Below, piece after piece: positions 15,580 to 22,002 of a DNA stretch of 64,000 nucleotides (its first letter is position 1; each line of letters begins with the position of its first letter). Below the pieces are notes generated by a model. That model was given only the letters and a program-made list of their open reading frames with translations, was not told the origin of the DNA and searched no databases. The translations under genes were made by a program, and so were the position numbers. This DNA comes from Halorubrum aquaticum (lineage in GTDB: Archaea > Halobacteriota > Halobacteria > Halobacteriales > Haloferacaceae): NCBI RefSeq assembly GCF_900113615.1, contig NZ_FOPZ01000005.1, forward strand, positions 124,001 to 188,000, given 5' to 3'.

Positions 15580-15666
15580 TCGTCCGTCCGCTGACCGGTC
15601 GCTCCGCTTTCTCGAGTCGATTCGGTCACGACCGGACCGCGGACCGTCGGAGACGAGTTGAGGTCC

Positions 15667-15678
15667 CGAACGTATTCG
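15667..15678. promoter_or_regulatory. CGAAC-GT-ATTCG palindrome ahead of the DUF2249 gene
   Basis: CGAACGTATTCG is an inverted repeat with one mismatch, ending 40 bases before the ATG at 15,719. A perfect version, CGAACGGGTTCG, lies at 16,672-16,683 at a nearly equal distance from two other DUF2249 genes. This form resembles the palindrome I recall for the haloarchaeal anaerobic/denitrification regulator NarO (CGAAC-N2-GTTCG); that link is from memory. Confidence 0.5.
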
Positions 15679-15718
15679 GCTCAAGGCCGATGCGGGCGGC
15701 TCCCGTCCCGTCGATCGC

Positions 15719-15952
15719 ATGCCGACACTCGATGTCCGAGAGATCCCGCCGGTGGACCGTCACACGAAGATCCACGAGAAGTTCGAGGCGATGGAGCCGG
15801 GCGAGACGCTCACGATCGTCAACGACCACGAGCCGAAGCCGCTGTTCTACGAGATGGCCGCCGAGGTGCCGTCGTTCGACGAGGACGCCTACGAGGTGTA
15901 CGAGGAGTCGCCCGGCGAGTTCGTCGCGGACTTCCCGAAGCGAGAGGAGTAG
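15719..15952 (+). CDS. DUF2249-like protein (first of three)
   Basis: A 77-residue domain of the DUF2249 / TusA-like type: LDVREIPPVDRHTKIHEKFEAMEPGETLTIVNDHEPKPLFYEM, with a G-E-T-L-T-I-V-N-D-H-E-P-K-P core, then a beta hairpin. Such small proteins are found with nitrate/nitrite and hemerythrin genes and are thought to bind redox ligands or metal, but their function is not settled. It has its own promoter with a CGAAC palindrome. Confidence 0.85.
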   Translation: MPTLDVREIPPVDRHTKIHEKFEAMEPGETLTIVNDHEPKPLFYEMAAEVPSFDEDAYEVYEESPGEFVADFPKREE

Positions 15953-16054
15953 TCGCCGAGCGTTCGGCAAACCGTCGTCGCTGGCGCGGAGAACACGTCC
16001 AACGCTCCATCCCGCACCACGACCATCGATCCCACGCCGCCATCGTCCCGTACC

Positions 16055-16381
16055 TCAGGCGTCATCACGGGGGCTCCGTTCCTCGTCGACGCCGAGGAGC
16101 CGTGCGAGGGCGCGAACGCGGTCCGGATCGGTTTGAGCCGTCCGTTCCGGGCCGGGATCGAGGCCGACCGTCAGCCTCCCGACGAGGGTCGACGCGAGAG
16201 CCCGGAGCGTCTCCCGCTGTTCGTCGGCGAGCGTCCCGCGGGCTTCGAGCGCGGAGACCGCCTCCTCGAGTTCGCGCCGCTCGATCCGGGCCGCACGCCG
16301 ACGGAGTCGCCGCCGGTATCGCCGCCGGAGTCGTTCCGGATCGGATGCCGGATCGATCCCGTCGACGCGGGACTCAGGCAT
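16055..16381 (-). CDS. Free-standing glutamyl-tRNA-reductase dimerisation domain (GlutR_dimer-like)
   Basis: 108 residues matching only the C-terminal helical dimerisation domain of HemA: an Arg-rich helix, RELEEAVSALEARGTLADEQRETLRALASTLVGRLTVGLDPG, then ALARLLGVDEE near the end (HemA proteins end similarly with ..LFGLE). It lacks the catalytic Cys and NADPH domains, so it cannot reduce glutamyl-tRNA. It may bind HemA or a partner in the DUF2249 operon (inference). Its ATG lies 8 bases inside the end of the upstream DUF2249 gene, so the two are co-translated. Confidence 0.72.
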   Translation of the reverse strand: MPESRVDGIDPASDPERLRRRYRRRLRRRAARIERRELEEAVSALEARGTLADEQRETLRALASTLVGRLTVGLDPGPERTAQTDPDRVRALARLLGVDEERSPRDDA

Positions 16382-16634
16382 GGCTTATCTCGACGTGCCA
16401 GACCGCGGCTCCGTCGTCGCCGGTCGGTTCCTTCCGCGTCGTCTCGTATCGGAATCCGCGACGTTCGAGGACGTCGTACAGCGGCTCCGGCTCGAAACCG
16501 TTCACCAGGAGCAGCGACTCGCCCTCGGGGAGGTCCTCGAGCGCGGCCATGATGTCGCCGAACGGTTCGCCGTCGATCTCGCGGGCGTCGAGCCGCCGGT
16601 TCGCGTCGGACGGGTCGGGCAGGTCGGTGCTCAT
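16374..16634 (-). CDS. DUF2249-like protein (second of three)
   Basis: 86 residues with the same core as its neighbours: RRLDAREIDGEPFGDIMAALEDLPEGESLLLVNGFEPEPLYDVLERRGFRYE. The P-E-G-E-S-L-L-L-V-N-G-F-E-P-E-P stretch aligns with that of the 15,719 gene. It is upstream of, and overlaps, the GlutR-dimer gene. The start ATG (16,632-16,634) is 37 bases from a perfect CGAAC-GG-GTTCG palindrome shared with the divergent third copy. Confidence 0.85.
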   Translation of the reverse strand: MSTDLPDPSDANRRLDAREIDGEPFGDIMAALEDLPEGESLLLVNGFEPEPLYDVLERRGFRYETTRKEPTGDDGAAVWHVEISHA

Positions 16635-16671
16635 ATCGGATACCGGAACGGGTCCGGAGTAGGGGTTCTCC

Positions 16672-16683
16672 CGAACGGGTTCG
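16672..16683. promoter_or_regulatory. Perfect CGAAC-GG-GTTCG palindrome between divergent DUF2249 genes
   Basis: CGAACGGGTTCG reads with two 5-base arms that pair exactly. It is 37 bases from the minus-strand start at 16,634 and 38 bases from the plus-strand start at 16,722, almost at the midpoint of the 87-bp intergenic region. This position suits an activator or repressor serving both promoters at once. A similar element lies 40 bases ahead of the gene at 15,719. Confidence 0.6.
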
Positions 16684-16721
16684 GGGAGAGGCGTACGGGT
16701 CCGAACCCCGTATCCCGGGAC

Positions 16722-16988
16722 ATGCCCGAGACCGCGGAGTTCCTCGACCGAGCCGGAGTCCCGGAGGACGTGGAACACGAGACGCTCGACGCCCGGGAAC
16801 TCCCGCCGCCGCGACCGCTCAAGGACACCCTCGAGCGGCTGGCGGACCTGGACGACGACGTGGCGCTGATCCAGTACAACGACCGTCGACCCCAACACCT
16901 CTACCCGCGGCTCGACGACCGGGGATACCGCCACGAGACCGTCGAGGACGACGGGACGGTCGTGACCGTCATCTGGACCGACGGCTGA
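16722..16988 (+). CDS. DUF2249-like protein (third of three)
   Basis: 88 residues, with EHETLDARELPPPRPLKDTLERLADLDDDVALIQYNDRRPQHLYPRLDDRGYRHETVED. The core has a DDDVALIQYNDRRPQHLYP stretch in place of the GETLTIVNDHEPKPL consensus and is the most divergent copy. The ATG at 16,722 lies just after the palindrome-bearing divergent promoter. The dehydrogenase on the opposite strand begins immediately after its end. Confidence 0.82.
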   Translation: MPETAEFLDRAGVPEDVEHETLDARELPPPRPLKDTLERLADLDDDVALIQYNDRRPQHLYPRLDDRGYRHETVEDDGTVVTVIWTDG

Positions 16989-17000
16989 ACCGTCCTCTCC

Positions 17001-18389: not shown

Positions 18390-18968
18390 ATGCCAAAGTA
18401 CTCGACGGGGGACGGAGGCGGCGACGACGACGGCGACGCCTGCGAGCTCTGCGGACGGGAGACGACGAACCTCCAGCGGGCGAACGTCGCCGGCGCGCGC
18501 CTGCTCGTCTGTTCGAACTGCCGCCCGCACGACGACTCCAGACGGGGATCGGGCGGAAGCGGGGGCGGCGGAGGCGGAAGCGGGGGCGGGAGTGCCGGCG
18601 GCTCCGGCGGCGGATCCGGCAGCGCCGGCGGTGCGGACGGGAGCGGCCCGCGCAGCCGCACACAGGAGATCGCCAACAAGCAGGCGAAGATGTACGACGC
18701 CGCGACCGGCGACTCCTCCCACTGGGAGGAGGAGGGGACGAACTACGAGGAGGACCGGCTCCCGTACCTCGTCTCCGGCTACGGCGACCTGACGACCGAG
18801 GCGCGTCAGGGGGAGGGACTCACCGTCGAGGAGCTGGCGGCCGAACTCGACGTCGACGAGGACGACCTGTTGGCGATCGAGGACGGCCGGGCGGCGACCG
18901 CGGGCGTCGGCGGCTCCGTCGTCCGCGCGGTCGCGGAGCGGCTCGACGTGGAACTCGTCGAGGAATGA
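18390..18968 (+). CDS. Multiprotein bridging factor 1 homologue (MBF1) with a Gly/Ser linker
   Basis: 192 residues. An N-terminal zinc ribbon (ACELCGRETTNLQRANVAGARLLVCSNCRPHD) is followed by a long Gly/Ser-rich linker (about 53-90), then a conserved middle (SRTQEIANKQAKMYDAATGD) and a C-terminal HTH (LTVEELAAELDVDEDDLLAIEDGRA...VGGSVVRAVAERLDVEL). Archaeal MBF1 binds the transcription/translation machinery. The ribbon and HTH are canonical; the linker is unusually long. The stop overlaps the HD gene's start (ATGA-like, 18,965-18,968), so the two are coupled. Confidence 0.9.
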   Translation: MPKYSTGDGGGDDDGDACELCGRETTNLQRANVAGARLLVCSNCRPHDDSRRGSGGSGGGGGGSGGGSAGGSGGGSGSAGGADGSGPRSRTQEIANKQAKMYDAATGDSSHWEEEGTNYEEDRLPYLVSGYGDLTTEARQGEGLTVEELAAELDVDEDDLLAIEDGRAATAGVGGSVVRAVAERLDVELVEE

Positions 18969-20224
18969 ACGCGATCAAGGACAGCGTTCACGGTCACGTC
19001 CGACTGGACCCGGCGGCGGCCGAGCTGATCGACACGCCGGCGTTCCAGCGACTGCGCCACGTCAAACAGCTGTCCACGGTCCGGCTCGTGTACCCCTCCG
19101 CGAACCACACCCGGTTCGAGCACAGCCTCGGCGTCTATCACCTCGCCCGGCAGGCGCTCGACGGCCTCGATCTGGACCCCGACACCGCCGCGCACGTCCG
19201 GGCGGCCGCGCTGCTCCACGACGCGGGCCACGGCCCGTACGGCCACCAGACCGAGGGGATCATCCGGCGGCGAACGGGCCGGGATCACGACGACGTCGAG
19301 TGGCTCCTGACCGATCCGGACCGCGAGGTCACCCGCGTCCTCGAGCGCCACGGTCTCGACCCGGAACGCGTGGCGGCGCTGATCGCGGGCGAGGGCGGCG
19401 TCGGCGCGCTCGTCTCGGGCGAGCTCGACGTCGACCGCATGGACTACCTCGTGCGCGACGCCCATCACACGGGCGTCCCCTACGGCACCGTCGACACCGG
19501 GCGACTGGTGAACGAACTCCGGCTCGTCGACGGCGAGAGCGGACGGGGCAACGGCGGGAACGAACGGGGCAACGGCGGGAACGAACGGGACGGCGGAGGG
19601 AGCGACCCCGACCCCGCGAGCGCCGACCTCGTGCTCGCCGAGGGGAACGTCGCCACCGCCGAGAGCCTGCTTTTAGCCCGCTCGTTGATGAACGCGGTCG
19701 TCTACCGCCACCACGTCTCCCGGGTCGCCGGCGCGATGCTCGAACGCGCCTCCGAGCGCTATCTCGACCGGACGGGGACGGACGTCGAGACCTTCCGGCG
19801 GATGGCCGATCACGACCTGCTCGTCGACCTCCGCGAGCACGTCCCGGAGCTCGGCCGGCGGATCGAGCGCCGCGACCTGTACAAGCGTGCGGTCTGGGTC
19901 GGGCTCGGGGAGGTGCCGGCCGGAACCGTCGACGCCGACCACGAGGCGGCGCTCGCGGCCGAACGCGAGATCGCCGACCGGGCCGGCGTGGATCCCGAGA
20001 GCGTCGTCGTCGACGTCCCGTCGCGACCGGGACTCAAGGAGTCCGGCTCCACCGTCGTCGTCGACGGGATCACCCAGCGACTGTCGGACGCCTCCGAGCT
20101 CGTCGCCGGGATCCGGGCGGCCGAGCGCAGCCGCTGGCGGCTCGGCGTGTACTGTCCGGGCGATCACGTCGAGGCCGTCCGTGAGGCCGCCCGCGACGTG
20201 TTGGGCCTCCGGCTCGCCGAGTGA
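18965..20224 (+). CDS. HD-domain phosphohydrolase, SAMHD1-like (copy 1)
   Basis: 419 residues of the HD superfamily. Metal-site residues are visible in NHTRFEHSLGVYHLA, AALLHDAGHGPYGHQ and ELDVDRMDYLVRDAHHTGVPYG, the H...HD...D order of SAMHD1/dGTPase-type enzymes. Such proteins hydrolyse dNTPs or nucleotide polyphosphates; the substrate here is not known. A low-complexity loop (about 192-212, RGNGGNERGNGGNERDGGG) is encoded by a 21-bp direct repeat. It overlaps the MBF1 gene. The paralogue at 20,761 lacks this loop. Confidence 0.88.
   Translation: MNAIKDSVHGHVRLDPAAAELIDTPAFQRLRHVKQLSTVRLVYPSANHTRFEHSLGVYHLARQALDGLDLDPDTAAHVRAAALLHDAGHGPYGHQTEGIIRRRTGRDHDDVEWLLTDPDREVTRVLERHGLDPERVAALIAGEGGVGALVSGELDVDRMDYLVRDAHHTGVPYGTVDTGRLVNELRLVDGESGRGNGGNERGNGGNERDGGGSDPDPASADLVLAEGNVATAESLLLARSLMNAVVYRHHVSRVAGAMLERASERYLDRTGTDVETFRRMADHDLLVDLREHVPELGRRIERRDLYKRAVWVGLGEVPAGTVDADHEAALAAEREIADRAGVDPESVVVDVPSRPGLKESGSTVVVDGITQRLSDASELVAGIRAAERSRWRLGVYCPGDHVEAVREAARDVLGLRLAE
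19541..19600 (+). repeat. In-frame 21-bp direct repeat in the HD gene
   Basis: The unit beginning GGACGGGGCAACGGCGG occurs at 19,541-19,561, 19,562-19,582 and, partly, 19,583-19,600. It encodes the Gly/Asn-rich insertion. Because the unit is a multiple of three it keeps the frame. It may vary in copy number between strains by slippage. Confidence 0.7.
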
Positions 20225-20760: not shown

Positions 20761-22002
20761 ATGGCCACGGTCAAGGACACCGTCCACGACCACATCGAGA
20801 TCGACGGCGTCGGCGCGGACCTCCTCGACACGCCGACCGTCCAGCGGCTGCGCCACGTCAAACAGCTCGGTACCGTCCAGCTCGTGTACCCCTCCGCGAA
20901 CCACACCCGGTTCGAGCACAGCCTCGGCGTCTACCACCTCGCTCGACAGGCGCTCGACCACCTCGGGATCGAGGGGCGACAGGCCGACCGGATCGAGGCG
21001 GCCGCGATGCTTCACGACGTGGGACACGGCCCGTTCAGCCACAACCTCGAGTCGCTCACCCACCGTCGGACCGGAAAGTACCACGACGACGTCGAGGAGC
21101 TGCTCGACGGCGGCGAGGTGGGTGAGGTCCTCCGCGAGCACGGCCTCGATCCCGGGACGGTCGCCGGGGTCGTCGCCGGCGAGGGAACGTACGCCGGTCT
21201 CGTCTCGGGCGAGCTCGACGTCGACCGCATGGACTACCTCGTGCGCGACGCCTACCACACGGGCGTCCCCTACGGCACCATCGACACCGAGCGGTTCGTC
21301 CGGGAGCTCACCTTCGTGGAGGGGGTCGAATCCGGGGGGGACTCGCCCGCGCTCGTCCTGGACGAGGGGAACGTCCAGACGGCGGAGAGCCTCCTCCTGG
21401 CGCGGGCGTTGATGAACCCGGTCGTCTACACCCACCACGTCGCGCGGATCTCGAAGGCGATGCTCCGACGGGCGGCCGCGGAGCTCCTCGACGCGACGGC
21501 GACGAGCGCGGCCGAGCTCCGCCGGATGGACGACCACGACTTCCTGGCGGCGATCCGCGACTGTCCGGCGACGACGGAGCTCTCGCGACGGTACGACGAG
21601 CGCGACCTCTACAAGCGGGCGGTGTGGGCGGAGTACGGCGACGTCCCCGACCGCGTCCACGACGCCGACCACGCGAGCGAACTGGCGCTCGAACGCGAGA
21701 TCGCCGAGGAGGCCAGCGTCGCCCGCGAGGACGTGATACTCGACGTGCCGCCGGAGCCCTCGATGCGCGAGTCGACCGCGCGGGTGACGGTCAACGGCGA
21801 GGTCCGGCGGCTCGAGCGGCAGTCGCCGCTCGTCTCCGCGCTGCGGGTCGCCCAGCGGAACCAGTGGCGGCTCGGCGTGTACGCGCCCGGCTCGGCGACC
21901 GACCGGGTCGGCCGGGCGGCCGCCGACGTGCTCGGACTCGACCCCGACGCGCTCGTGATCGAGGTGCGGAAGGCGATGCCGACGACGCTCGACGAGTTCT
22001 GA
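20761..22002 (+). CDS. HD-domain phosphohydrolase, SAMHD1-like (copy 2)
   Basis: 413 residues, a close paralogue of the protein at 18,965. The N-terminal 60 residues align almost throughout (RLRHVKQLGTVQLVYPSANH in both). The metal motifs are conserved: TRFEHSLGVYHLARQAL, AAMLHDVGHGPFSH, ELDVDRMDYLVRDAYHTGVPYG. It lacks the low-complexity insert. It starts at the ATG after a TATA box. The pair flanks a USP gene, evidence of a local duplication. Substrate unknown. Confidence 0.88.
   Translation: MATVKDTVHDHIEIDGVGADLLDTPTVQRLRHVKQLGTVQLVYPSANHTRFEHSLGVYHLARQALDHLGIEGRQADRIEAAAMLHDVGHGPFSHNLESLTHRRTGKYHDDVEELLDGGEVGEVLREHGLDPGTVAGVVAGEGTYAGLVSGELDVDRMDYLVRDAYHTGVPYGTIDTERFVRELTFVEGVESGGDSPALVLDEGNVQTAESLLLARALMNPVVYTHHVARISKAMLRRAAAELLDATATSAAELRRMDDHDFLAAIRDCPATTELSRRYDERDLYKRAVWAEYGDVPDRVHDADHASELALEREIAEEASVAREDVILDVPPEPSMRESTARVTVNGEVRRLERQSPLVSALRVAQRNQWRLGVYAPGSATDRVGRAAADVLGLDPDALVIEVRKAMPTTLDEF

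What the first reader, a model, noticed from the sequence alone, without database searches (positions are those of the whole stretch)
15650..16990. DUF2249 trio plus a free-standing GlutR dimerisation domain under shared palindromes
Three DUF2249-like proteins surround a protein that matches only the C-terminal domain of glutamyl-tRNA reductase. CGAAC-N2-(G/A)TTCG palindromes lie 37, 38 and 40 bases from the three DUF2249 starts. That geometry suggests one regulator, possibly the anaerobic/denitrification regulator NarO (from memory), and a function linking heme synthesis to redox or nitrogen metabolism.
Basis: partly seen in the sequence, partly recalled or inferred. Interest (0 to 1): 0.72.

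Follow-up and report, generated by a model that had tools for sequence, protein, structure and literature searches.

The report
Stray HemA dimer domain, denitrification regulon
A salt-loving archaeon carries a small protein that is only the dimer-forming tail of the first heme-synthesis enzyme, and relatives across its class keep that gene under the DNA switch of the nitrate/nitrite-breathing genes, often beside the anaerobic heme synthase gene, which suggests an undescribed control link between heme making and anaerobic respiration.

Summary
Window 15719-16988 holds three DUF2249 genes (A, C, D) and a 108-aa protein (B) homologous to only the C-terminal dimerisation domain of glutamyl-tRNA reductase (HemA). 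Two palindromes, not three, serve three starts at 40, 37 and 38 bases; the second is shared by the divergent C and D genes. B overlaps C by 8 bases, so it is probably in C's operon. The palindrome is the published haloarchaeal denitrification motif (CGAA-N4-TTCG, tied to NarO at nirK in Haloferax volcanii). The palindrome count in the window is not unusual; the exact spacing is, and recurs in dozens of relatives across several families. B alone misses Pfam's cut-off (19.5 against 22.9 bits), but as a family the homology is secure: 26 of 26 members match, profile-profile E 3.7e-22, and window B against its own genome's HemA gives 2e-11. Of 54 free-standing B loci, 16 have their own palindrome (37-38 bases), 16 follow ahbD or an ahbD fragment, 12 follow DUF2249 gene C or D. 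B tracks NirK within the genus. I found no paper on free-standing B. Most likely it pairs with HemA to tune heme-precursor supply under low oxygen; that mechanism is inference.

The parts
15667..15678 (.). palindrome CGAACGTATTCG, candidate NarO-type site for gene A
   Evidence: ends 40 bases before the A start; the same 38-41 base gap at A in 31 of 31 loci that have a palindrome within 70 bases
15719..15952 (+). gene A, DUF2249 protein (77 aa) with His15 and His37 kept in relatives
   Evidence: PF10006 83.9 bits; conservation in 38 relatives
16055..16381 (-). gene B, free-standing relative of the HemA (glutamyl-tRNA reductase) dimerisation domain, 108 aa; no catalytic or NADPH domain
   Evidence: own HemA E 2e-11; family alignment A1 vs HemA tails E 3.7e-22; 26/26 members match PF00745
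16374..16634 (-). gene C, DUF2249 protein (86 aa); its last 8 bases overlap the start of B, so C-B is probably one operon
   Evidence: PF10006 60.4 bits; overlap ATGCCTGA read directly
16672..16683 (.). palindrome CGAACGGGTTCG shared by the divergent genes C (37 bases) and D (38 bases)
   Evidence: the same 37/38 spacing in relatives
16722..16988 (+). gene D, DUF2249 protein (88 aa), weak TusA-like match
   Evidence: PF10006 54 bits, PF01206 18.8 bits below cut-off

Best explanation
This is a satellite of the haloarchaeal denitrification / anaerobic-heme regulon. A NarO-type (bacterio-opsin-activator-like) regulator most likely binds CGAA-N4-TTCG just upstream of the core promoter and switches on three DUF2249 proteins and B when oxygen is low. 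B is a HemA dimerisation domain that has lost the catalytic and NADPH parts. Most likely it binds HemA through the dimer interface, as mixed dimers or as a capping domain, and so adjusts 5-aminolevulinate supply to the demand of the anaerobic (AhbD) heme route and of NO-reducing or globin proteins. Shown: homology, gene order, palindrome spacing, co-occurrence with NirK. Inferred: regulator identity, induction, HemA binding, and the sign of its effect. My odds: B is a real member of this regulon, 0.9; B acts by binding HemA, about 0.4.
For: Homology: (own HemA found by the B profile at 74.8 bits, E 1.3e-20). Regulon: motif in the literature (PMC5746218: the palindrome is in denitrification promoters and at ahbD, and is essential at nirK by the reporter work it cites; PMC10062603: mutations lower nor and nos promoter activity). 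In this genome palindromes lie before an AhbD-like radical SAM gene (46 bases), a CGCGG protein (38), a heme-copper-oxidase-like gene near NirK (166), a two-domain multicopper oxidase (67), and next to a BAT-type regulator locus. Context of 54 free-standing B loci: 16 under their own palindrome, 16 after ahbD or an ahbD fragment, 9 after DUF2249 D, 3 after DUF2249 C, 2 after CGCGG, 1 after DUF2249 A, 7 none of these. Co-occurrence in the genus: B+NirK+ 15, B+NirK- 6, B-NirK+ 1, neither 30; Fisher p 1.6e-7. The GluTR dimer domain is a known regulatory surface: plant FLU binds it (PMC4726326).
Against: No binding, expression or genetic data exist here. HemA itself has no palindrome in its fetched surroundings (L084). 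B is about as often next to a DUF2249 gene as to ahbD, so its partner may be DUF2249. Six genus members keep B without a NirK match, and two loci (L094, L095) keep B with only an ahbD fragment. This genome has no NarG match. The Fisher test ignores shared ancestry. The fold search was uninformative.
Confidence: 0.45

Rival explanations
1. B no longer meets HemA. It has become a small helical partner of the DUF2249 proteins, and together they sense or handle nitrate, nitrite, NO or iron-sulfur damage, like the proposed nitrate-sensing DrpA/DrpB pair of Thermus.
For: B directly follows or overlaps a DUF2249 gene (C, D or A) in 13 of 54 loci, including the window, and often faces gene A. DUF2249 genes are induced in denitrifying Haloferax mediterranei (PMC11218638) and drpAB affects nitrate-dependent expression (PMC6282519).
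Against: B follows ahbD or an ahbD fragment in 16 loci, and one copy sits in a cobalamin-like operon (L163), pointing to tetrapyrroles. The dimer-domain sequence is kept, which a pure DUF2249 partner would not need.
Confidence: 0.25
2. B is a self-dimerising adaptor that tethers AhbD or other Ahb-pathway enzymes, without acting on HemA activity.
For: Recurrent CGCGG-ahbD-B gene order in families f1, f7 and f8, and ahbD-B in f2 and f6.
Against: In Halorubrum B is unlinked from ahbD (in the window genome ahbD is on contig C10, B on C5), and in family f3 it usually follows DUF2249 D instead.
Confidence: 0.15
3. The GlutR similarity is a chance match of a charged helical protein, and the ORF may not be a gene.
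For: The single Pfam hit is below the curated cut-off, and a simple codon-usage gene finder did not pick B.
Against: 26 of 26 relatives match PF00745, profile-profile E 3.7e-22, own HemA E 2e-11. The ORF is conserved across families with fixed promoter spacing.
Confidence: 0.03

Closest known systems
Glutamyl-tRNA reductase (HemA) C-terminal dimerisation domain, PF00745
   Same: Same domain by sequence: RRE-x4-A-x-x-LEA-x-G-x-LT-x-EQRETV and the final helix
   Different: No catalytic or NADPH domain, free-standing, under the denitrification palindrome; lacks the PT-x-SLR and DDW signatures seen in haloarchaeal HemA
NarO / CGAA-N4-TTCG denitrification regulon of Haloferax (PMC5746218, PMC10062603, PMC11218638)
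   Same: Palindrome sequence; target types ahbD, DUF2249, globin, BAT-type regulator
   Different: B is not mentioned as a target in the passages I read of these papers; spacing here is tighter (37-40 bases) than the 66-79 given for nir, nor and nos in H. mediterranei
DUF2249 proteins / DrpA-DrpB of Thermus (PMC6282519)
   Same: DUF2249-type proteins in a denitrification setting; A keeps conserved histidines
   Different: Three small single-domain copies with B rather than a drpAB pair; location and function untested
Plant FLU and GluTR-binding protein (PMC4726326)
   Same: Proposed type of action: post-translational control of GluTR, FLU by binding the dimerisation domain
   Different: B is not homologous to FLU or GBP; it is a copy of the domain that FLU binds

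Membership tests
GlutR_dimer domain (PF00745) | significant sequence homology to the HemA C-terminal domain | tested here: met
GlutR_dimer domain (PF00745) | window protein alone scores above Pfam's curated cut-off | tested here: not met
   19.5 against 22.9 bits, profile positions 27-70 of 99
GlutR_dimer domain (PF00745) | same fold as solved GluTR dimer domains | tested here: inconclusive
   predicted helical hairpin, pLDDT 70; GluTR 4yvq_A listed at Z 6.0 among many unrelated helical bundles
glutamyl-tRNA reductase enzyme (HemA) | N-terminal catalytic and NADPH-binding domains | tested here: not met
   108 aa with only the dimer-domain match; the true HemA is elsewhere, contig C13
DUF2249 (PF10006) | match above curated cut-off for A, C and D | tested here: met
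NarO-type (CGAA-N4-TTCG) regulon | palindrome at fixed distance upstream of the start, conserved in relatives | tested here: met
NarO-type (CGAA-N4-TTCG) regulon | binding by a NarO/BAT-type regulator and induction without oxygen | not testable with these tools
   18 HTH_10 proteins exist in the genome; no expression data

The most novel reading that the evidence does not exclude
Haloarchaea use a detached copy of HemA's own dimerisation domain, made only under denitrifying or low-oxygen conditions, as a subunit-exchange regulator of the first step of heme synthesis.
Probability: 0.35. Interest if true: 0.82.

Novelty: new variant of a known kind. Interest (0 to 1): 0.62.

Why it matters
How haloarchaea match tetrapyrrole supply to the switch between oxygen and nitrogen-oxide respiration is poorly known: aerobic ChdC and anaerobic AhbD heme routes are documented, but I found no account of control at the HemA step in haloarchaea. 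A conserved, co-regulated fragment of HemA is a concrete, testable candidate, and it adds a new gene to the denitrification islands of the class.

Tried and rejected
Reading significance from the number of palindromes: rejected, and the genome-wide intergenic excess is weak. Chance helical similarity: rejected by family-level tests. Structure comparison: uninformative for a helical hairpin. The protein at L080:6112-7326 first looked like NirK, but it is closer to two-domain laccases; the real NirK is at C2:86144-87073. The ~365-aa protein I had labelled 'Halocyanin' is this NirK. A single-protein scan of genome contigs found nothing, alignment A1 was too diverse to scan with, and a narrower alignment found 13 named Halorubrum loci. 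No plasmid match for B. One origin of B from HemA is neither shown nor excluded; the tree has too few columns. Full text of Hattori 2016 on NarO is not held, so NarO facts come from papers citing it.

Full report
What is there. The window comes from a haloarchaeal genome (G000, 3.18 Mb in 40 contigs). Close B relatives found by alignment search are all Halorubrum species, so the genus is probably Halorubrum. Genes A, C and D are DUF2249 proteins above Pfam's cut-off, the only three in the genome. B (16055-16381, minus strand) matches only the GlutR_dimer domain, below the cut-off for the single protein. C and B overlap by eight bases (ATGCCTGA), so they are probably co-transcribed. Two palindromes serve three DUF2249 promoters: 15667-15678 for A, and 16672-16683 shared by the divergent C and D genes.

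Is the GlutR match real? Yes. A single-sequence search with B found HemA tails in most of 170 genomes of the family. Window B against its own HemA gives E 2e-11. An alignment of 26 free-standing B proteins matches PF00745 in every member, finds the genome's own HemA at 74.8 bits, gives profile-profile E 3.7e-22 against haloarchaeal HemA tails, and has plant GluTR as its best solved structure (4yvq, E 5.7e-4). B lacks the catalytic and NADPH domains, so it is not a reductase. The predicted structure is a helical hairpin plus a short helix; fold searches cannot tell it from other helical bundles.

How widespread is it? Free-standing copies, distinct from HemA, occur in about 21 of 52 genomes of the genus (my reading), and in several other haloarchaeal families (second matches in f2, f3, f4, f6, f7 and f8 besides f1; neighbourhoods read for most of them).

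Where does it sit? I examined 54 loci chosen only because they encode B. In 16 an in-frame start lies 37 or 38 bases after its own palindrome. In 16 B directly follows ahbD-like sequence, in two of these (L094, L095) only a fragment. In 9 it follows DUF2249 D, in 3 DUF2249 C, in 2 the CGCGG protein, in 1 DUF2249 A. In the remaining 7 none of these applies; five of those lie in NirK-bearing clusters with several palindromes (L087, L088, L090, L091, L092). Neighbours also include a truncated globin and a BAT-type regulator. In the genus B and NirK co-occur (15 both, 6 B only, 1 NirK only, 30 neither; Fisher p 1.6e-7, shared ancestry not corrected). In this genome NirK and B are on different contigs, so the link is not only physical.

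The palindrome. CGAA-N4-TTCG is published as the candidate site of the regulator of denitrification genes and ahbD in Haloferax volcanii (PMC5746218, citing the NarO work). In H. mediterranei mutating a matching motif lowers nor and nos promoter activity (PMC10062603), and the motif occurs before two of four DUF2249 genes there (PMC11218638). Counts alone are weak evidence. Fixed spacing is strong: among loci with a palindrome within 70 bases, D has 38 bases in 19 of 20, C has 37-38 in 8 of 9, A has 38-41 in 31 of 31, and a heme-copper-oxidase-like gene has 38-39 in 16 of 16. In this genome the palindrome also precedes an AhbD-like radical SAM gene and a CGCGG protein.

Mechanism. Shown: homology, gene order, spacing, co-occurrence. 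Inferred: a NarO-type regulator induces these genes at low oxygen; B then binds HemA by the dimer interface and tunes 5-aminolevulinate supply. A precedent for control through this domain is plant FLU, which binds it (PMC4726326). Whether B lowers or raises HemA activity cannot be told. The main rival is a DUF2249 partner role, in line with the proposed nitrate-sensing DrpA/DrpB of Thermus (PMC6282519).

Novelty. DUF2249 and the palindrome in haloarchaeal denitrification are known. I found no paper on a free-standing GlutR dimerisation domain; a survey of archaeal fusions and fissions names a HemA-HemB fusion, and the passages I read do not mention this domain. The library holds open-licence papers only.

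Noticed in passing
L163:5383-5757 (-): A free-standing GlutR_dimer-like ORF lies between genes that look like cobalamin-pathway genes (CobN- and CbiX-like by eye), a second tetrapyrrole setting for this domain.
   Followed up: no
L094, L095 upstream of B: Only short ahbD-like fragments (96-103 bits) remain before B while B is intact, as if ahbD decayed and B stayed.
   Followed up: partly
L060:1634-1963 and L075:894-1964 (window genome contigs C3 and C10): A CGCGG putative rSAM-modified peptide protein (TIGR03995) and a TIGR04053/AhbD-like radical SAM protein, unlinked here, each sit behind the same palindrome (38 and 46 bases); in other genomes they are adjacent.
   Followed up: partly
window genome G000: NirK present (C2:86144-87073, 365 bits) but no NarG match, so a partial nitrogen-oxide respirer by these two tests.
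   Followed up: partly
window 18965-20224 and 20761-22002: Two similar ORFs by eye (HD-phosphohydrolase-like) in near tandem, possibly paralogs.
   Followed up: no
window 18390-18968: HVO_2718-like transcription regulator (PF24250, 192.7 bits).
   Followed up: no
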